NCBI GenBank assembly: GCA_016186825.1
Contig: JACPKW010000003.1
Location: forward strand, 1 to 34,119
DNA: 34,119 nt
Origin: Candidatus Giovannonibacteria bacterium
GTDB taxonomy: Bacteria > Patescibacteriota > Minisyncoccia > JACPKW01 > UBA11713
Direction: 5' to 3'
Positions 146 to 19,644 of the stretch are shown piece by piece. Both the position numbers and the translations under genes were made by a program. Under the pieces are notes generated by a model. That model ran no database searches, was not told where the DNA came from, and worked only from the letters and a program-made list of their open reading frames with translations. The stretch's first letter is position 1, and each line of letters opens with the position of its first letter.

Positions 146-1855
146 TTAAATGACTTCATTTTGATAACATTTTTTGCAGTAAACAATCGGGGCTTCTTCT
201 TTGGTGTATTTCGTCTGGAAAGTGGCGCCGCATTTATCGCAGATCCGCTCAATCAAGCGCAGATTTCTCACCCAGATATTAAATTTCTCCTGAATTCGGC
301 AGAAGGGGCATTGTCGCGGTAGTGGCAGATTCCTTTCGCGCAGGAATTTCAATTCCATCGGAATTACTCGAAAGCCTCGCTCGCATTTATTGCACCCGAT
401 TACTTCATCCAGAATCGAATCCGGTGCATCCTTGATATGATCCGGCAAATTCTCTGCCGGAATTGTCACACTATAAGTTTTTATCTCCGGCTCCTTCCAT
501 TTGTATCCATTTGCTTCAACTTCTTCTTTCGACATCGGGAAAAAGTTTGAGGCAATTGTTTCGTTATACGCAAAAGGAGAAAGCTCAATCGGGAAAAACT
601 CGCCGTATTTATATATTCTTCCTTTTTTATCCACGTACGGCATCTCACTCATATGTTGGATTATTTTTAGGCGTAATTTCTCGTATTCTTCTTTTTCATA
701 TCGTTTATTTAAAATAATATAATCGCCTTTTTTTACGGAAACACAGCCAAAATGATTAGAACCTCCTGTAGAAAGCTTGCAATATTCAGCGTTTACAAGC
801 CCTAAGCCTGATTCGTTGCAAAATTTTAATCCACTTGCCTGTTCGCCAACATTAGAACACTCATATGATAACGATAAATTATCTCCCCAACTTGATATGT
901 CATAACAATCTTTAATTGGGGGATTTGGCATTAGAAACAAAAATTTACTATCTTCAGCTCCGACAACTTCAAAACATTGTTGACAATTTTTTGATTGAAA
1001 AAAATGGCTGCCTGAAGAATTGACCGACATCTCCTCCTCCACTGGCTTAGGCGGAAATAATTTCCAATGATCCTCTGCTAATTTCTGAATTTCCTTATAT
1101 GTTTTAAACGATCCAAGATTCCATTTCTTTATTTCTTCAAAATATTTTTCTCCGGAATAGGGCTTATTAAAAATGTGGAATTTTTTATTTCTTAAGTTTG
1201 CAGATGCAAAACAATTTTGACAATTGAATGAATCCTTTAAAAAGAAGCAGTCAATGCAATTTACGACTTGGCTTCTGCTCCCGACGCAGCGGCTGTCTTT
1301 ATATGAATGCATAGAATCATAGCAAAGCTCACAAGATATTATTGCAGAAGAATCCAAAATTTCATTGCAATGATCAACGTAAAAACCGTAAGCCGAATTT
1401 TCCGTATACCCCGCATGAAAAAGGAGATATGAACTTTTAATATCGCCAGCATGATTATTCCAGGGAGACGTCTTCATGGTTTGGATGTCTATGGATAACC
1501 CTAAAAGGGGAACTTTATGCCAAAGTTCTTGGAATTGCTCAAAAAATGGGCGTGAGAAATCATAATCTCTCCCGTAATCAAACCCGCTCCACTCATCAGA
1601 CCACCAACATGGGGGGCAGTACACTGCATACGGAGAATCCGGCGCATACATAGAGATCGTTTCTTGCTTACAAAGATCACATTTTCTTTGATACAAATTA
1701 AAAATATTAAAAAAAGCGAGCCTTCGCTGCAAACGGCACTCCGGACAAAAAGTCGGCGGGGGGACTTGTATCTTTTCGTAAAATTTAAAATCCGAAGCGT
1801 CTATTTCAAATTCGCATTTGCAATTCTGACAGGCTCGTTTTTCAGAATTAGCCAT
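146..1855 (-). CDS. Large Cys-rich protein with N- and C-terminal zinc-ribbon/treble-clef-like modules, unknown function
   Basis: 569-aa ORF. N-term CQNCKCEF...FYEKIQVPPPTFCPECRLQRRLA...CDLCKQ...VYCPPCWW; C-term CNKCERGFRVIP...PLPRQCPFCR...CDKCGATF...VYCKKCY. Homologous to ORF 17828..19630. Confidence 0.88.
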   Translation of the reverse strand: MANSEKRACQNCKCEFEIDASDFKFYEKIQVPPPTFCPECRLQRRLAFFNIFNLYQRKCDLCKQETISMYAPDSPYAVYCPPCWWSDEWSGFDYGRDYDFSRPFFEQFQELWHKVPLLGLSIDIQTMKTSPWNNHAGDIKSSYLLFHAGYTENSAYGFYVDHCNEILDSSAIISCELCYDSMHSYKDSRCVGSRSQVVNCIDCFFLKDSFNCQNCFASANLRNKKFHIFNKPYSGEKYFEEIKKWNLGSFKTYKEIQKLAEDHWKLFPPKPVEEEMSVNSSGSHFFQSKNCQQCFEVVGAEDSKFLFLMPNPPIKDCYDISSWGDNLSLSYECSNVGEQASGLKFCNESGLGLVNAEYCKLSTGGSNHFGCVSVKKGDYIILNKRYEKEEYEKLRLKIIQHMSEMPYVDKKGRIYKYGEFFPIELSPFAYNETIASNFFPMSKEEVEANGYKWKEPEIKTYSVTIPAENLPDHIKDAPDSILDEVIGCNKCERGFRVIPMELKFLRERNLPLPRQCPFCRIQEKFNIWVRNLRLIERICDKCGATFQTKYTKEEAPIVYCKKCYQNEVI

Positions 1856-1971: not shown

Positions 1972-4900
1972 TTATTTTTCTATCCCGATTTGCATTTGAG
2001 AATCATCAAGTTTTATTTCTTTCTGACTCCCAGCCTTGCCGGAAAATTTAAGTTCGGAAATGTTGATTTCTTTTTTTATAAGCGCGGAATTTTTTTTGAG
2101 AATTTTTTCAATTTCTTTCGGGGCATTTACCGAGAGCATAACTTTATCCTGCGGCTTCAATTTGAGTTCCTTACGGAAATCCTGAACTTGCCTGATAAAT
2201 TCGCGCACAATCCCTTCTTCTTTGAGATCTGCGGTAATTTCCGTATTCAATTCAAAATCTTTTTCCAGTGTTTTATCGAATACAATCTTTTTGACGTTAA
2301 TTTCTCCCAAAATAAGTTCAACAAGTTCTTTACTTATTTCCTCCCCCTTAACTTTCAACATCGAAAGAGGCTGGCGGATTTTTATTCCCGCTTTCTGCCG
2401 CTCTTCCAAGCCACGCGACACAATCTCTCGGACTTTTCTCATATCCTCCAGAAGTTTATGGTTTATTTTTTTTAGTTCATAGTTCGGAAAATCTTCCAAG
2501 TGCACACTTTCCACCTTCCCTTCAAGCCCGTGATAAATTATCTCCGCGCTAAAAGGAATATACGGCGCCAATACCTTTGAGAGTTCCAACAATAAACGAC
2601 CAAAAACTTCCGAGCACTCTTTCGCCTCGCTTGAATTTTCCTTCATGTAAGAACGGATGCGCCTGATATGCCAGTGCGAAATATCATCAATTATAAAATT
2701 TTCGACCGTCCTCGCCGCTGAAACAACGTCATACTTATCGAGATTCTCTGTAATCTCGCTTAAAACTTTATTCCATTTCGCCAAAACCCATTTATTGATT
2801 ACTAATTTGGGGTTCATTAATTTTTCATTTTGATTTTTAAATTTTGAATTTACATTATATGTCTTCCAATACAAAAACGAGTTCCAGAGAATCATAAAAA
2901 ATCTTCTTTGAGCATCGCGGACATCTTCTTCTTTAAAAAGCTTCGGATCCCAGGGCTGATTGATTGTAAAAAAATACCAGCGCACCGGATCCGCTCCGTA
3001 TTTTTCCATCAAAGCCATTGGATCGACAATATTGCCGAGTGATTTGGACATCTTCTTTCCGTTTTTATCCAAAAGATGCCCTAAAGAAATAACATTCTTA
3101 TAAGGAGCTTTAAAACCCAAAAGTGTCCCCACGGCGAGGAGATTATAAAACCACCCGCGTGTTTGATCTACCGCTTCAACAATGTAATCTGCGGGGTATG
3201 GAAGTTTTTTCTTAGGCTTGCCTGGAGCGAAGTCGAAAGGCCAGTTCTCTGATGCAAACGGCATCGCACCAGAATCAAACCAGACGTCCACAACTTCCAA
3301 AACGCGCCGCATCTCGCCCCCGCACCCGCCAGCAGACGGATCACATTTCAATTGGATTTCATCAATATACGGCTTATGCAAATCGAGCTCGCCTTCATTA
3401 TTGTATGGCCAGTTGTGAAAACGAATCTTGTTAAATTGATTTGGATAAAAAGCGCGAGCTCCTTTTTCGTAATCTTTTTCAGAAAGGGCATCATGCGCGC
3501 CAAAAAAGACAAAAGCTGGTACGCCATGGGTTAAAATTAAAATCTTTTTCCCGCGATGCTTCCTCACAATTTCCAAAACGGCTTTCATGACCCGCGCGCG
3601 CACTTCTCTGTAATTTTCCGCACCTTCAGGTTTTTTATAAAAGTGTTCTTCAAAACTTGAAAATCTGCTATTGAATCCGCCTTGTCCATCAAACGCTGGA
3701 CCAACTAATTGATCATAGAGTTCCGGAATAATTTCAATATTAGAAACCCCGATTTCTTTTCCCACAATTTCTGCGGTTTGTTTTGCCCGAAGTGATGGAG
3801 ATGAAATAATCACTTCAATTTTTTCTTTTTTTAGTTTTTTCGCCGATTCTTGGGCGTCTTTTCTCCCTTTAGCAGTCAAGAAAGCGGCGGAGTCGGTTTC
3901 CGGAGATACCGCCCAGGTATCAGAAATATTATGCACAGCTTCGGCATGCCGCATGACAATAAGATCCGTGGGATTCGGATCTAACGCATCCATCTCCGAA
4001 AGAGACCCTGGAACTTTTATAGATTTGCACTTCTCGCATCTCCAAACCGGCAACGGAGTCCCCCAATAGCGTTCGCGCGAAAACGCCCAGTTTTTCTTTT
4101 CTTTCAGCCATTCGCCGAAGCGCCCGTCCTTAATGTGCTCGGGATGCCAATTGATCTCCTGATTATTTTTTATCAACTCTTCGCGCCTCGCATTAACATC
4201 CACCCACCAGGCCTTTCTCACAAAGTACATCAACGGATTTTTACAACGCCAGCAAAACGGATAATCATGTTCGTATTTTTCTTTTTTATAAAGCAGCGCG
4301 CGCGCGCTTAAATCTTCCATAATCATAGAATCGGCTTTTTTGAACCATGTTTTATCCCACGCATTTTTCGGAGTTTGCATAAGCCCGTCTGCATCTGTTG
4401 TGATAAGGACGGGCAAATCATCTTTTTTTGAAATTTGAAAATCGTCTTCACCAAAAGCCGGCGCAATATGGACAATCCCCGAACCGTCTTGTGTCGAAAC
4501 GAAACCGCCAAGTACTGCGTGATACGGCGCGGAGTTCGGATATAAACTTTCATATTCAACGCCCTCAAAACTCGCTCCCTTAGCGCGATTGATAATTTTA
4601 TACGGCCCGTCGAGAACGCTAAGCCGCGCTTCAGCCAAAATCAGCCATTCCTCGGGATATTTTTCGAGTTCAACCGTGACGTATTCAGTTTCTGGATTCA
4701 GCGCAAGCGCGACATTTCCAGGGAGCGTCCAAGGAGTAGTTGTCCAAACCAAAAAATAGGCACGTTTCCTGCCTTTTTCTTCCCCTTTCAACTGAAATTT
4801 AATATAAACGGAATCTTCTTTTATCTTTTCATATCCCTGCGCAAGCTCATGGGAGGAAAGCGCCGTCCCGCAGCGCGCGCACCACGGAACTACCTTGTAA

Positions 4901-5475
4901 TCTTCGTAAAGCAGTTTGCTGACTGAAAAATTTTTTATAATCGCCCATAGCGATTCAATATAAGAATTTTCATAGGTGATATAGGGGTGTTCCATATCAA
5001 TCCAAAAACCCATGCGATCTGTCAGCTTTTCCCAAAGTTCTTTGTATTCCCAAACGGACTGGCGGCATTTTTTGTTAAATTCGGCGATGCCGTATTTTTC
5101 AATATCTTTTTTGCTTTTGAGTCCGAGTTTTTTTTCGACTTCAACTTCTACGGGAAGCCCGTGCGTGTCCCAACCGGCTCGGCGCGGCACGTGAAAACCG
5201 CGCATAGTTTTATAGCGAAGAATAATATCTTTGAATGACCGCGCCTCAACGTGGTGCGTGCCAGGCATGCCGTTTGCAGTTGGGGGTCCTTCAAAAAACG
5301 CAAAGCGTTTTTTGCCCTGAGCTTGCCGAAGGGCAACCGACTTTTCAAAAATATTATTTTCTTTCCAAAACAAAAGAATCTCCTCTTCAGCCCGAGGAGA
5401 CAACTCACTGTATTTAAATTTATCCGTTTTTGCGGACACGCCTGCCTTTTCGACAGGGCCTTTCTCATCGGCCAT
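1972..5475 (-). CDS. ileS: Isoleucyl-tRNA synthetase with inserted histidine-phosphatase domain
   Basis: FFEGPPTANGMPGTHHVEAR, GWDTHGLPVE, WAFSRERYWGTPLPVW, VVDVWFDSGAMPFA and GKKMSKSLGN signatures. An internal ~195-aa block carries VMRHAEAVHN...SSPSLRAKQTAE...LILTHG. Confidence 0.96.
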   Translation of the reverse strand: MADEKGPVEKAGVSAKTDKFKYSELSPRAEEEILLFWKENNIFEKSVALRQAQGKKRFAFFEGPPTANGMPGTHHVEARSFKDIILRYKTMRGFHVPRRAGWDTHGLPVEVEVEKKLGLKSKKDIEKYGIAEFNKKCRQSVWEYKELWEKLTDRMGFWIDMEHPYITYENSYIESLWAIIKNFSVSKLLYEDYKVVPWCARCGTALSSHELAQGYEKIKEDSVYIKFQLKGEEKGRKRAYFLVWTTTPWTLPGNVALALNPETEYVTVELEKYPEEWLILAEARLSVLDGPYKIINRAKGASFEGVEYESLYPNSAPYHAVLGGFVSTQDGSGIVHIAPAFGEDDFQISKKDDLPVLITTDADGLMQTPKNAWDKTWFKKADSMIMEDLSARALLYKKEKYEHDYPFCWRCKNPLMYFVRKAWWVDVNARREELIKNNQEINWHPEHIKDGRFGEWLKEKKNWAFSRERYWGTPLPVWRCEKCKSIKVPGSLSEMDALDPNPTDLIVMRHAEAVHNISDTWAVSPETDSAAFLTAKGRKDAQESAKKLKKEKIEVIISSPSLRAKQTAEIVGKEIGVSNIEIIPELYDQLVGPAFDGQGGFNSRFSSFEEHFYKKPEGAENYREVRARVMKAVLEIVRKHRGKKILILTHGVPAFVFFGAHDALSEKDYEKGARAFYPNQFNKIRFHNWPYNNEGELDLHKPYIDEIQLKCDPSAGGCGGEMRRVLEVVDVWFDSGAMPFASENWPFDFAPGKPKKKLPYPADYIVEAVDQTRGWFYNLLAVGTLLGFKAPYKNVISLGHLLDKNGKKMSKSLGNIVDPMALMEKYGADPVRWYFFTINQPWDPKLFKEEDVRDAQRRFFMILWNSFLYWKTYNVNSKFKNQNEKLMNPKLVINKWVLAKWNKVLSEITENLDKYDVVSAARTVENFIIDDISHWHIRRIRSYMKENSSEAKECSEVFGRLLLELSKVLAPYIPFSAEIIYHGLEGKVESVHLEDFPNYELKKINHKLLEDMRKVREIVSRGLEERQKAGIKIRQPLSMLKVKGEEISKELVELILGEINVKKIVFDKTLEKDFELNTEITADLKEEGIVREFIRQVQDFRKELKLKPQDKVMLSVNAPKEIEKILKKNSALIKKEINISELKFSGKAGSQKEIKLDDSQMQIGIEK
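3220..3241. repeat. In-frame REP-like palindromic element in ileS (encodes PFDFAPGK)
   Basis: gcctggagcgaagtcgaaaggc, resembling the common short palindrome CCCTGAGCGAAGTCGAAGGG. Confidence 0.55.
3325..3342. repeat. In-frame 18-bp palindrome-like insertion splitting the IleRS zinc knuckle (C-DPSAGG-CGGEM)
   Basis: cccgccagcagacggatc (minus: GATCCGTCTGCTGGCGGG) sits between the two Cys codons of an expected KCxxCGGEM knuckle. Confidence 0.5.
3385..3980 (-). other. Histidine phosphatase (phosphoglycerate-mutase-like) domain embedded in IleRS
   Basis: DLIVMRHAEAVHN (His510), SSPSLRAKQTAEIVG, PEGAENYREVRARV, KILILTHG (His650). These match the RHG/R..T/E/H motif set of the His_Phos_1 family. Confidence 0.88.
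5312..5336. repeat. In-frame REP-like palindrome in ileS (encodes LRQAQGK)
   Basis: ttgccctgagcttgccgaagggcaa: 7-bp perfect stem plus inner GC pairing. Confidence 0.65.
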
Positions 5476-11047: not shown

Positions 11048-11494
11048 ATGGGTGTTCTGCTCGAAAACAAAAAAGCATATTTCAATTATGAAATACTCGA
11101 AAAATATGAGGCTGGTTTGGAATTGTTAGGACTTGAAGTAAAATCGCTCAAGCAAAAACACGGAAACATTGCGGGCGCGCGCGCAATCATAAGAAGTGGC
11201 GAGGCATATCTTGTCGGAATGGACATACCGCCTTATCAGCCGAATAACACGCCGAAAGATTACGAACGGGAGCGCACGCGAAAACTTTTATTGCATAAAG
11301 ATGAAATTTCTCGTTTGGCAGGGCGCGCGGAAGAACGCGGGTTGACTGTGATCGCAACTAAGGTGTATACTCTCGGCGGCAGAATAAAAGTTGAAATCGC
11401 GGTCGTTCGCGGAAAAAAGAAATTTGAAAAAAGAGATAAAATAAAAAAGCGCGACATCGAAAGAGAAATCGGAAAAACTTTAAAACGGGGATGA
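11048..11494 (+). CDS. smpB: SsrA-binding protein SmpB
   Basis: KKAYFNYEILEKYEAGLELLGLEVKSLKQKHGNI, YQPNNTPKDYERERTRKLLLHKDEI. Confidence 0.97.
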   Translation: MGVLLENKKAYFNYEILEKYEAGLELLGLEVKSLKQKHGNIAGARAIIRSGEAYLVGMDIPPYQPNNTPKDYERERTRKLLLHKDEISRLAGRAEERGLTVIATKVYTLGGRIKVEIAVVRGKKKFEKRDKIKKRDIEREIGKTLKRG

Positions 11495-11812
11495 TCGGCC
11501 TCGAGAGGAAATGGAAAAGCTCGTGTTCAGGCGGAGGATGCAGAACCACTCCTTAAACTCCTGCAAAACACATAAGTGCAAACTTATTCGGAAAGACGTT
11601 GGAACCTGCTTACGCAGTAGCCTAATGTCTCTTCCCGCGTAATGCGGGACATCCTTCCTTCTGATTCTCGCTGGGAAGAGCGGGGTGTCATACAAGCGAG
11701 ACCAAAATTGGAAACGCCTTGGCCAATTTTGCGATAAAGAGGCAACAAATTTAAGCCTGTCAACCACTGCTTGGAAATTTTCTCCACGCGGGTTCAATTC
11801 CCGCCATCTCCA
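11487..11812 (+). ncRNA. ssrA: tmRNA
   Basis: 5' GGGGATGATCGGCCTCGAG pairs with 3' CATCTCC-A. T-arm GCGGGTTCAATTCCCGC. Tag ORF GCA AAC TTA TTC GGA AAG ACG TTG GAA CCT GCT TAC GCA GTA GCC TAA at 11578..11625. Adjacent to smpB. Confidence 0.95.
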
Positions 11813-11813
11813 C
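11795..11813 (+). repeat. Direct repeat copy A (tmRNA 3' tail) CAATTCCCGCCATCTCCAC
   Basis: Exact 19-bp match to 11987..12005. Confidence 0.9.
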
Positions 11814-11864
11814 AAATACAAAAAATCAGCCTGCGCAAGCGGGCGATTTTTGTTTGTGGAGATG
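11805..11864. repeat. Long inverted repeat overlapping the tmRNA 3' end and terminator
   Basis: catctccacaaatacaaaaaatcagcctgc-gcaa-gcgggcgatttttgtttgtggagatg. Confidence 0.85.
11821..11851 (+). terminator. ssrA intrinsic terminator core
   Basis: aaaaatcagcctgc gcaa gcgggcgattttt. Confidence 0.75.
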
Positions 11865-11986
11865 AGCGAGCAAACTGCTTTGCTCGCGCGCGGAATTGAA
11901 AGCCGGAGCGTTGTCGCGCGAGCGCGCGCGACCGCGAGGCAGGGTCGAGAAAATTTGCGAGCGGCGGCGAGCAAATTATTCGTGAC

Positions 11987-12005
11987 CAATTCCCGCCATC
12001 TCCAC
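11987..12005 (+). repeat. Direct repeat copy B of the tmRNA 3' tail
   Basis: caattcccgccatctccac, identical to 11795..11813. Confidence 0.9.
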
Positions 12006-17764: not shown

Positions 17765-17829
17765 TGTCCCTACATCAATTTTCTTTCGCCATTTTTTGGT
17801 GGGCGAAAACTGATGTAGGGACTTTTTTT
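17765..17829 (+). terminator. Long terminator-like hairpin (plus-strand T-run)
   Basis: gtccctacatcaattttctttcgccattttttggtgggcgaaaactgatgtagggacttttttt. Confidence 0.75.
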
Positions 17830-19615
17830 AAACTACTTCAGTGAGATAACACTCCTCGCAATAAACTATTTCAGGGCGATCCGGGGCGTATGTTGTTTCG
17901 AATTCATTAGTACAAGGATTTGCGCCATGCTCATGGGTAATTGTGTTTTGATAAACTCCATTTGAAGAGATATCCCCCGCGCATTGGCAAGTTCTTTCCC
18001 AGAGTTTCAAAGGACTACGGTGTTGAAGTCTTTGATAATGACGGCAATTTGGGCAAAGCCGAGGCAGTGCGATATTTTGATTCCTCAAAAAATCCAATTC
18101 TTGAGAAATAATGCGGAAGGCTTCGGTGCAGTTCTCGTTACAGTCGCCCTTATGTTCGCATTCAATAATTTCGTCCAAAATCGAATCTTTGACATCTTTT
18201 ATATGATCGGGAATATGTTCACTTTTTAGGGTGGTCCGGTAATCCCTTGCTTTTGGCTCTCTCCATGAAAGTCCTCTGATCAAAGCTTCATCTTTTAATA
18301 AAGGAAAGGTATCGTGCGCTGTCGTTTCATTATAGCCAAAAGGGCTTAATTCAGAGGGAAAAAACTCGCCATATTTGTAGATTCTGCCAAGTTTATCTAC
18401 ATAGGGATTTCGATTCATTTCACTAATAATTTTCGCCTTAATATTTTCATATTCCTCTTTTGTGTATTGTTTATTTAAAATACAAAATTCTTTATTTCTC
18501 AAGCCGACAGAGCCAAAAATATTTTTACTCCAGACTACAAATTGACAATATTCTATATCCTGACAGCTGCGGGCCACGAACCAGGAAAAACGGATACGAG
18601 ATATCATATCTCCCGCCTGCATCGCTTCGTATACCAATTCGCAGTTTTCTCCGTAGTGCGTAAAATCATAACAATCAGTCACTTTAGGGACAGTTATCAG
18701 GGAACAATATCGGGAATTTTCTGTATCCGTAACAATAAAAGAATCTTTAACATTTTTCGAATTGTAAATATAGTCACCCGAGACATTAAAGTTTCTGCGC
18801 TCATGAAAATACTTATTTGGAAATTTATTCCAGAAAGAAAAACCCTCATTGCCAAGCTTCGTTAAACTTTCATAAGAGCTTTTTAAATATTTTTGTGCTA
18901 ATTGCTGGTATTCTTCCTTAGAATATTGTTTGTTAAAAATACAATATTTTTTATTTCTTAGATTTACGCAGCCGATTAAATCGGAGCACCCAATGCAGTT
19001 TTTAGAAAAAGTGACATTAAGGCAAGATTCGCAATCAAGCGAATAAAATACCCTATTACAATCACGACAGTTGACCGCTTCATAACATAGTTCACTATTT
19101 ACCAGCATCATGTTGTCTATGCTATCTTTGCATCTGTCAATACCACTTCCATAGGAGCAGTTTTCACTATGATCACTGTTTGTTATGAGATAACAATTTT
19201 TCAAATAGCCGACCATGTTGGTATAGTCCGAATTTTCAAGAGTGCTATAATAGCCAAAAAGATTCATAACTGGAACTCTCTGGAAAAGATCATGTAGTTG
19301 AACCAAAAACGGTTTGCTCGGATCATACTCAAAGCCGTAACTCATTGCATCCCAGTCGTCAGACCACCAACAAGGACTACAGTAAACTGTTGCTCCACAG
19401 TCATTATGAAAAACGGATATGATATTTTTTCCGCATTTATCACAACTCCTCTGGTATAGATATTTTTCATTCCTCCACGCAAGACGTCTGATCAATCTAC
19501 ATTCGGGACAAAACGTCGGCGGAGGGACTGACATTTTTTCATAAAATTTAAAATCCTCCGGTTCGATCGTGAACTGGTTTTTACAGTTTTGGCAGATTTT
19601 TGTTTGAGGACTCAT
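17828..19615 (-). CDS. Large Cys-rich zinc-ribbon protein (paralog of 146..1855)
   Basis: MSPQTKICQNCKNQFTIEPEDFKFYEKMSVPPPTFCPECRLIRRLAW...VYCSPCWWSDDWD..., C-term CPNCRHYQRL...CEECYLTEVV. ATG at 19615 preferred over 19630. Confidence 0.88.
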   Translation of the reverse strand: MSPQTKICQNCKNQFTIEPEDFKFYEKMSVPPPTFCPECRLIRRLAWRNEKYLYQRSCDKCGKNIISVFHNDCGATVYCSPCWWSDDWDAMSYGFEYDPSKPFLVQLHDLFQRVPVMNLFGYYSTLENSDYTNMVGYLKNCYLITNSDHSENCSYGSGIDRCKDSIDNMMLVNSELCYEAVNCRDCNRVFYSLDCESCLNVTFSKNCIGCSDLIGCVNLRNKKYCIFNKQYSKEEYQQLAQKYLKSSYESLTKLGNEGFSFWNKFPNKYFHERRNFNVSGDYIYNSKNVKDSFIVTDTENSRYCSLITVPKVTDCYDFTHYGENCELVYEAMQAGDMISRIRFSWFVARSCQDIEYCQFVVWSKNIFGSVGLRNKEFCILNKQYTKEEYENIKAKIISEMNRNPYVDKLGRIYKYGEFFPSELSPFGYNETTAHDTFPLLKDEALIRGLSWREPKARDYRTTLKSEHIPDHIKDVKDSILDEIIECEHKGDCNENCTEAFRIISQELDFLRNQNIALPRLCPNCRHYQRLQHRSPLKLWERTCQCAGDISSNGVYQNTITHEHGANPCTNEFETTYAPDRPEIVYCEECYLTEVV

Positions 19616-19644
19616 ATTTTTACTCCACAAGTTTCATGTTTTAC

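What the first reader, a model, noticed from the sequence alone, without database searches (positions are those of the whole stretch)
11795..12005. tmRNA tail duplicated around a palindrome-rich ~190-bp segment
CAATTCCCGCCATCTCCAC (19 bp, tmRNA T-arm/acceptor 3' side) is repeated exactly at 11795 and 11987. An inverted, interrupted copy lies between them: GTGGAGATG-[agcgagcaaactgctttgctcgc]-GCGCGGAATTG around 11856-11897, with the bracketed insert itself a hairpin. tmRNA 3' ends are classic integrase attachment sites, so this could be an integration scar, a minimal non-autonomous element, or palindrome-driven tail duplication.
Basis: partly seen in the sequence, partly recalled or inferred. 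Interest (0 to 1): 0.7.

Follow-up and report, generated by a model that had tools for sequence, protein, structure and literature searches.

The report
tRNA-tail-copying structured insertion element
Behind the tmRNA gene sits one copy of a previously uncatalogued family of about 150-base structured elements that insert at the 3' ends of tRNA and tmRNA genes across a bacterial phylum and carry both a direct and an inverted copy of whichever tRNA tail they sit next to; no mobile-element enzyme tested explains how they move.

Summary
In detail: the 19-nt tmRNA tail (T-loop C56 to one base past the discriminator) recurs exactly at 11795 and 11987, with an interrupted inverted copy between. It is not a one-off scar. 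A conserved core (CCGGAGC-hairpin-GCGAGGCRGGGTCG-hairpin-TGACC) was searched without any tRNA sequence in the pattern; all 14 hits in 38 relatives lie directly 3' of a tRNA or tmRNA gene. A covariance model finds it in 103 of 289 genomes of the class (up to 13 copies each) and 56 of 373 drawn from the phylum. Among 104 elements examined, 87 follow a same-strand tRNA/tmRNA (21 kinds), usually with a copy of that tRNA's own tail. Covariation is strong: 27 of 28 pairs change on both sides. Copies in one genome can share 91-97% identical cores yet carry arms matching different tRNAs. Empty sites occur in relatives (this tmRNA in G002; tRNA-Ser-TGA in G049). No Rfam family, phage, plasmid or viral match was found. 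Several multi-copy genomes lack reverse transcriptase, Y1 transposase, IS110 transposase and serine recombinase; one lacks tyrosine recombinase. Best reading: a non-autonomous structured insertion element whose arms derive from its target. Insertion mechanism and any RNA function are unproven.

The parts
11487..11813 (+). tmRNA (ssrA) gene, the insertion target; tag ANLFGKTLEPAYAVA; no CCA encoded (ACAA follows the acceptor strand)
   Evidence: ARAGORN and Rfam RF00023, 108.5 bits
11795..11813 (+). first tail copy: T-loop C56 to one base past the discriminator; functional tmRNA 3' end
   Evidence: exact 19-nt direct repeat; DR of 19 nt is the commonest length in the family
11814..11855 (+). 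linker: terminator-like hairpin (AAAAAATC-AGCC..GGC-GATTTTT) forming the tip of a long fold-back in which the tail pairs with the inverted arm
   Evidence: inverted repeat 11805-11822/11847-11864, 89% complementary; fold
11856..11864 (+). inverted arm 1: complement of the tmRNA acceptor 3' strand (GTGGAGATG)
   Evidence: sequence; fold
11866..11887 (+). hairpin H: 9-bp stem GCGAGCAAA/TTTGCTCGC, loop CTGC, at the acceptor/T-stem boundary
   Evidence: stem of at least 8 bp at this place in 71 of 104 elements against 2% of shuffles; 60 distinct stems; loop CTGC in 30
11888..11900 (+). inverted arm 2: complement of T-stem and T-loop down to T54 (..GCGGAATTGAA); 5' strand of P1
   Evidence: sequence; P1 81% paired over 105 elements with two-sided changes in all 9 pairs
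11901..11941 (+). core part 1, P2: GCC-GGA-GCG..CGC-GA-GGC hairpin with GGA/GA internal loop
11942..11986 (+). core part 2, P3: GGGTCG...TGAC(C) hairpin with conserved G-U pair(s); P3 closes on C11987
11887..12001 (+). covariance-model R1 match as a whole (88.7 bits, E 1.7e-27; a member of the model's own alignment)
11987..12005 (+). second (displaced) tail copy; its downstream flank matches the empty site of sister genus G002

Best explanation
The segment is one copy of a family of small, non-coding, non-autonomous insertion elements that target the 3' ends of tRNA and tmRNA genes. SHOWN by sequence: inserted units sit directly behind a tRNA/tmRNA gene; the gene's tail (T-loop position 56/57 to the 3' terminus, including CCA where encoded) is repeated downstream of the element; an inverted copy of the same tail, often split by a 9-bp hairpin, lies at the element's 5' side; a conserved core folds as a three-way junction (P1 made of the inverted and direct tail, plus P2 and P3). 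INFERRED: copies have moved between tRNA genes within genomes, and at each new site both arms came from, or were quickly matched to, the new target. The fold-back of tail, tRNA terminator and inverted tail suggests the inverted arm forms by self-templated (snap-back) copying at the terminator hairpin, but hairpin H between the arms is not explained by that. INFERRED: conserved G-U pairs on the tRNA-sense strand, and conserved unpaired letters, suggest the folded form is an RNA read from the tRNA's strand, or single-stranded DNA of that strand. The enzyme that moves the element is unidentified and presumably acts in trans.
For: A core-only pattern gave 14 of 14 hits behind a tRNA/tmRNA, none with the reversed control pattern. 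87 of 104 elements have a same-strand tRNA/tmRNA ending within 330 nt upstream, 21 kinds; median direct-copy score 18 of 20 to the own tail against 6 to others, own best in 75 of 87. The commonest DR is 19 nt from C56. Covariation: 27 of 28 pairs with two-sided changes, 89.8% of cells paired against 30-41% when slid; on the unfitted alignment 88% against 35-45%. G025 tm, Tyr and Leu cores are 91-96% identical and G019 Arg and Glu 97%, with arms that fit each tRNA. Inverted arms reproduce TGC instead of TTC T-loops (G000 Leu-GAG, G001 tmRNA, G234 Met) outside the P1 pairs counted. Empty sites: the second tail's flank matches G002 at the tmRNA (score 107 against 77 for the first tail's flank) and G049 at Ser-TGA (253 against 98.5). 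Tandem copies in G001, G019, G025 and G248. Family present in 103/289 class genomes and 56/373 phylum genomes.
Against: No enzyme is linked: G019, G020 and G030 have several copies but no RVT_1 listed for G019/G020, no Y1_Tnp, IS110 or serine recombinase, and G272 has 9 copies but no tyrosine recombinase detected. No excised or circular form, and no transcript, could be observed. Strong covariation is unusual for a pure selfish DNA repeat and could mean a host function. 17 of 104 elements had no tRNA found upstream, although two of these are behind a tmRNA that ARAGORN missed. The split inverted arm with hairpin H does not follow from any known insertion chemistry.
Confidence: 0.72

Rival explanations
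1. A functional RNA domain of pre-tRNA/pre-tmRNA 3' trailers: the inverted arm can pair either with the tRNA's own 3' half or with the downstream copy, so it acts as a tRNA-folding or processing switch, spread between tRNA genes by recombination and kept because it is useful.
For: Strong covariation and G-U pairs on the tRNA-sense strand. Equilibrium folding of 76 tRNA-element transcripts predicts the tRNA tail paired to downstream sequence with median probability 0.69. Orthologous placements are shared in some species, e.g. Ser-GCT in G019 and G149.
Against: Patchy between relatives and found behind 21 kinds of tRNA/tmRNA. The direct copy does not restore the tRNA fold in the model (6 of 76 tRNA-like with it, 21 of 76 when core and copy are cut off). 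Downstream copies decay in some loci while the tRNA stays intact.
Confidence: 0.25
2. Mini-islands integrated by a tyrosine recombinase acting in trans (the host Xer or a helper's integrase) at the T-loop, with the 19-nt repeat as attL/attR.
For: A displaced fragment beside a restored tRNA gene is the hallmark of integrase islands (PMC4383910). The repeat starts in the T-loop and ends at the tRNA end. Tandem arrays would fit repeated integration.
Against: An integrase does not change its element's internal inverted arm to fit each new tRNA. No PF00589 hit in G272, which has 9 copies, nor in G055, which has one. Elements hold no gene.
Confidence: 0.12
3. RNA-mediated insertion: a tRNA-like element RNA joined to an 18-20 nt 3' tRNA fragment is reverse transcribed and returned to the tRNA gene.
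For: Direct copy ends at the tRNA 3' terminus including encoded CCA; sense-strand G-U pairs; fold-backs centred on a terminator-like hairpin in some loci.
Against: Several multi-copy, nearly complete genomes (G019, G020, G025) have no RVT_1 reverse transcriptase.
Confidence: 0.2
4. Local accident: palindrome-driven duplication of the tmRNA tail during replication, without a mobile or functional element.
For: Long inverted repeats are present.
Against: The conserved core recurs at tRNAs across the phylum with covariation.
Confidence: 0.02

Closest known systems
Integrative islands in tRNA/tmRNA genes (tyrosine-integrase tDNA islands, as in Islander, PMC4383910)
   Same: Restored tRNA gene plus displaced tail fragment; target at the tRNA 3' end; tandem arrays
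   Different: About 150-190 bp instead of kilobases, no integrase or any gene, internal inverted copy of the tail, one core at 21 kinds of tRNA/tmRNA
MITEs and other non-autonomous transposons (from memory)
   Same: Small, non-coding, multi-copy, presumably moved in trans
   Different: No constant terminal inverted repeats; the inverted and direct arms change with each target; strict placement behind tRNA genes
REP/BIME and Rickettsia palindromic elements (from memory)
   Same: Short palindrome-rich bacterial repeats spread through a genome
   Different: Those carry fixed palindromes and no target-derived arms; G019, G020, G025 and G030 lack Y1 transposase
Group I/II introns, retron ncRNA, bridge RNA and other mobile structured RNAs (from memory)
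   Same: Conserved folded core with arms complementary to the target
   Different: No Rfam match even at E<1 other than tRNA, tmRNA and sub-threshold noise; carriers without RT exist; no IS110 gene

Membership tests
tyrosine-integrase tDNA island | displaced fragment of the target gene next to a restored tRNA/tmRNA gene | tested here: met
   19-nt direct repeats; empty sites
tyrosine-integrase tDNA island | element encodes, or has as helper, a tyrosine integrase | tested here: not met
   no room for a gene; G272 has 9 copies and no PF00589 hit; a helper absent from the assemblies cannot be excluded
MITE | constant terminal inverted repeats shared with an autonomous parent | tested here: not met
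   outer arms differ at each site and follow the local tRNA
REP/RAYT system | Y1 (TnpA-REP) transposase in the genome | tested here: not met
   G019, G020, G025 and G030 carry 5-10 copies without PF01797
retroelement / group II intron | reverse transcriptase in the genome and a group II RNA core | tested here: not met
   no RVT_1 in G019, G020, G025; no Rfam intron match
known Rfam RNA family | match above gathering score | tested here: not met
   only tmRNA/tRNA
structured RNA | compensatory changes in base pairs | tested here: met
   A3 was fitted to the model, A1 was not
structured RNA | is transcribed | not testable with these tools
   no expression data

The most novel reading that the evidence does not exclude
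A phylum-wide class of mobile structured RNA-like elements that invade tRNA 3' ends and re-template both of their arms from each new target tRNA, making a tRNA-like (acceptor plus T-stem) RNA capped by a conserved three-way junction: a mobility mechanism that matches no known transposition, integrase or retrotransposition scheme.
Probability: 0.4. Interest if true: 0.95.

Novelty: categorically new. Interest (0 to 1): 0.85.

Why it matters
A structured element that takes its arms from whichever tRNA gene it enters would be a new way for a genetic element to choose and re-learn its target. It is abundant in small-genome bacteria in a region (tRNA 3' trailers) that annotation pipelines usually skip. 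If transcribed, it is predicted to pair with the tRNA 3' half, so it could also affect tRNA supply or tmRNA maturation. The family gives many natural target-switch events for working out the mechanism.

Tried and rejected
Rfam at gathering and at E<1: no family besides tRNA/tmRNA and sub-threshold noise. Vehicle in viruses, phages, plasmids: 55 viral contigs match the loose pattern but none is convincing under the model (best 23.1 bits); no BLAST match in phages or plasmids. Enzymes: RVT_1, Y1_Tnp, tyrosine recombinase, IS110 and serine recombinase, none universal in carriers. Intron in the T-loop: rejected, because where one copy decays it is the downstream one and the upstream tRNA stays intact (G018 Trp, G028 Trp and Glu). 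Decoy hypothesis (the downstream copy frees the tRNA from the inverted arm): not supported by equilibrium folding. Inverted arm as a copy of the tRNA 5' strand: rejected, since it complements the 3' strand where the tmRNA has a G-U pair (GGAGATG, not GGGGATG) and includes T-loop bases. Naming host organisms through genome contigs failed (cap reached, 58). Open-access literature searches found no description of such an element; subscription journals and preprints were not searchable.

Full report
OBSERVATION. The 19-nt tail is exact at 11795-11813 and 11987-12005, unique to this locus in the genome and never seen in shuffles. The first copy is the 3' end of a genuine tmRNA. Between them are a terminator-like hairpin, the complement of the acceptor strand (11856-11864), a 9-bp hairpin with loop CTGC (11866-11887), the complement of the T-arm (to 11900) and an unlabelled stretch to 11986. 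The whole segment folds far below shuffled energy.

THE CORE. In sister genus G001 the tmRNA is followed by two tandem segments with the same skeleton but with arms that fit G001's own, different tmRNA tail. The shared letters gave a pattern, CCGGAGCN{10,38}GAGGNRGGGTCG, that holds no tRNA sequence. In 38 relatives it hit 14 places in 11 genomes, the reversed control none. All 14 lie 3' of a tRNA or of tmRNA, and nearly all carry a copy of that tRNA's tail. G000 itself has four copies by the model: tmRNA, tRNA-Phe, tRNA-Leu-CAA and tRNA-Leu-GAG.

STRUCTURE. Alignment A1 of 14 elements (MAFFT, not fitted to a structure) supports P1 (inverted arm with direct tail), P2 and P3: 88% of cells paired against 35-45% when slid, 18 of 28 pairs with two-sided changes. 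With 105 elements (A3, fitted to the model, so biased towards it) 27 of 28 pairs have two-sided changes and 89.8% of cells pair against 30-41% slid. One pair is G-U in 96 elements and another is G-U in 52 and G-C in 35, which fits folding of the tRNA-sense strand. Hairpin H, about 9 bp and often with loop CTGC, precedes the P1 arm in 71 of 104 elements against 2% of shuffles, with 60 different stems.

DISTRIBUTION. Model R1 finds matches in 103 of 289 genomes of the class and in 56 of 373 genomes drawn from the phylum. Host names are not shown by the tools; the 0.76-Mb genome and gene content look like a Patescibacteria/CPR member (inference). Of 104 elements inspected, 87 follow a same-strand tRNA/tmRNA within 330 nt, 21 kinds, and the downstream tail copy fits the own tRNA (median 18 of 20) far better than others (6). 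In more distant genomes the repeat runs to the encoded CCA. Loci were mostly taken from the best-scoring hits, and R1 includes T-arm-like letters in P1, so the tRNA fraction from R1 could be biased upward; the core-only pattern is free of that bias.

MOBILITY. Direct repeats most often measure 19 nt from T-loop C56. Empty sites: G002's tmRNA runs from the tail straight into the infC leader; aligned, it fits the flank behind G000's second tail (score 107) better than the sequence behind the first (77). Ser-TGA in G049 is empty and fits the second-tail flank of filled G149 (253 against 98.5). In three species of one genus, orthologous tRNAs are variously filled, empty or carry remnants. Within G025 the tmRNA, Tyr and Leu elements have cores 91-96% identical but arms that fit each tRNA; G019 Arg and Glu cores are 97% identical. 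The inverted arm reproduces TGC in place of TTC where the tRNA has it, outside the P1 pairs counted, so the arm reflects the target rather than only pairing with the direct copy. In some loci (G000, G025 and G140 tmRNA, G210 Phe) tail, linker and inverted arm form one long fold-back centred on a terminator-like hairpin. One copy (G264) sits in what looks like a coding 3' end with a 57-nt direct repeat.

MECHANISM. Shown: target class, repeat boundaries, conserved core, arms matching the target, filled/empty variation. Inferred: movement with re-templating of both arms, perhaps by snap-back copying at the terminator hairpin. Not explained: hairpin H between the two inverted arms, and the enzyme. 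RVT_1 is absent from G019, G020 and G025, Y1 transposase from these and G030, IS110 from 12 of 12 carriers tested, serine recombinase from G019, G020, G030 and G108; genomes have about one tyrosine recombinase with or without elements, and G272 has none detected with nine copies. A regulatory role remains possible: equilibrium folding predicts that the inverted arm captures the tRNA 3' half (median probability 0.69), though co-transcriptional folding and modification could prevent this.

COMPARISON. It works like a tDNA island in leaving a restored gene and a displaced fragment (PMC4383910), and like a MITE in being small and gene-less, but fails a tested defining feature of each: no integrase, no constant terminal repeats. 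No Rfam family matches. I found no description in the open-access literature searched, which is not proof of absence.

VERDICT. The real finding is larger: a phylum-wide family of structured tRNA-tail-copying elements.

Noticed in passing
L125, L139, L151, L152, L114, L086 (G030, G019, G049, G149): A second core type (B: AGGAAGGGGTCGGGAAAC..GTTTCCCGTGGMGGAA..) with the same inverted-plus-direct tail layout behind tRNAs, sometimes in tandem with the first type.
   Followed up: partly
L089 versus L150 (tRNA-Ser-TGA, G019 and G149): The flank after the upstream tail in one species resembles the flank after the downstream tail in the other and vice versa, as if the two flanks had been exchanged.
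   Followed up: no
L105 (G264 C3:39230-39344): Element in what looks like the 3' end of a protein gene, with a 57-nt direct repeat instead of a tRNA tail.
   Followed up: no
L133, L134, L147 (G019, G049): Type A elements truncated after the first third and fused to another palindromic repeat (TTTTGTCTCCCTTTGGAGGGAGTACCCGTAGGGGGAGGGTGGATAAAATRTAA), probably a REP-like family.
   Followed up: no
window 1972-5475 (-): Isoleucyl-tRNA synthetase-like protein of 1167 aa with a histidine phosphatase domain (PF00300, E 9e-25, residues 505-654) embedded between synthetase segments.
   Followed up: partly
window 11048-11494 (+): smpB lies directly before the tmRNA gene and its last codons overlap the tmRNA 5' end (11487-11494).
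   Followed up: no
window 146-1855 (-) and 17828-19630 (-): Two similar cysteine-rich proteins (569 and 600 aa, repeated CxxC ribbons), apparently paralogues, without any Pfam match.
   Followed up: no
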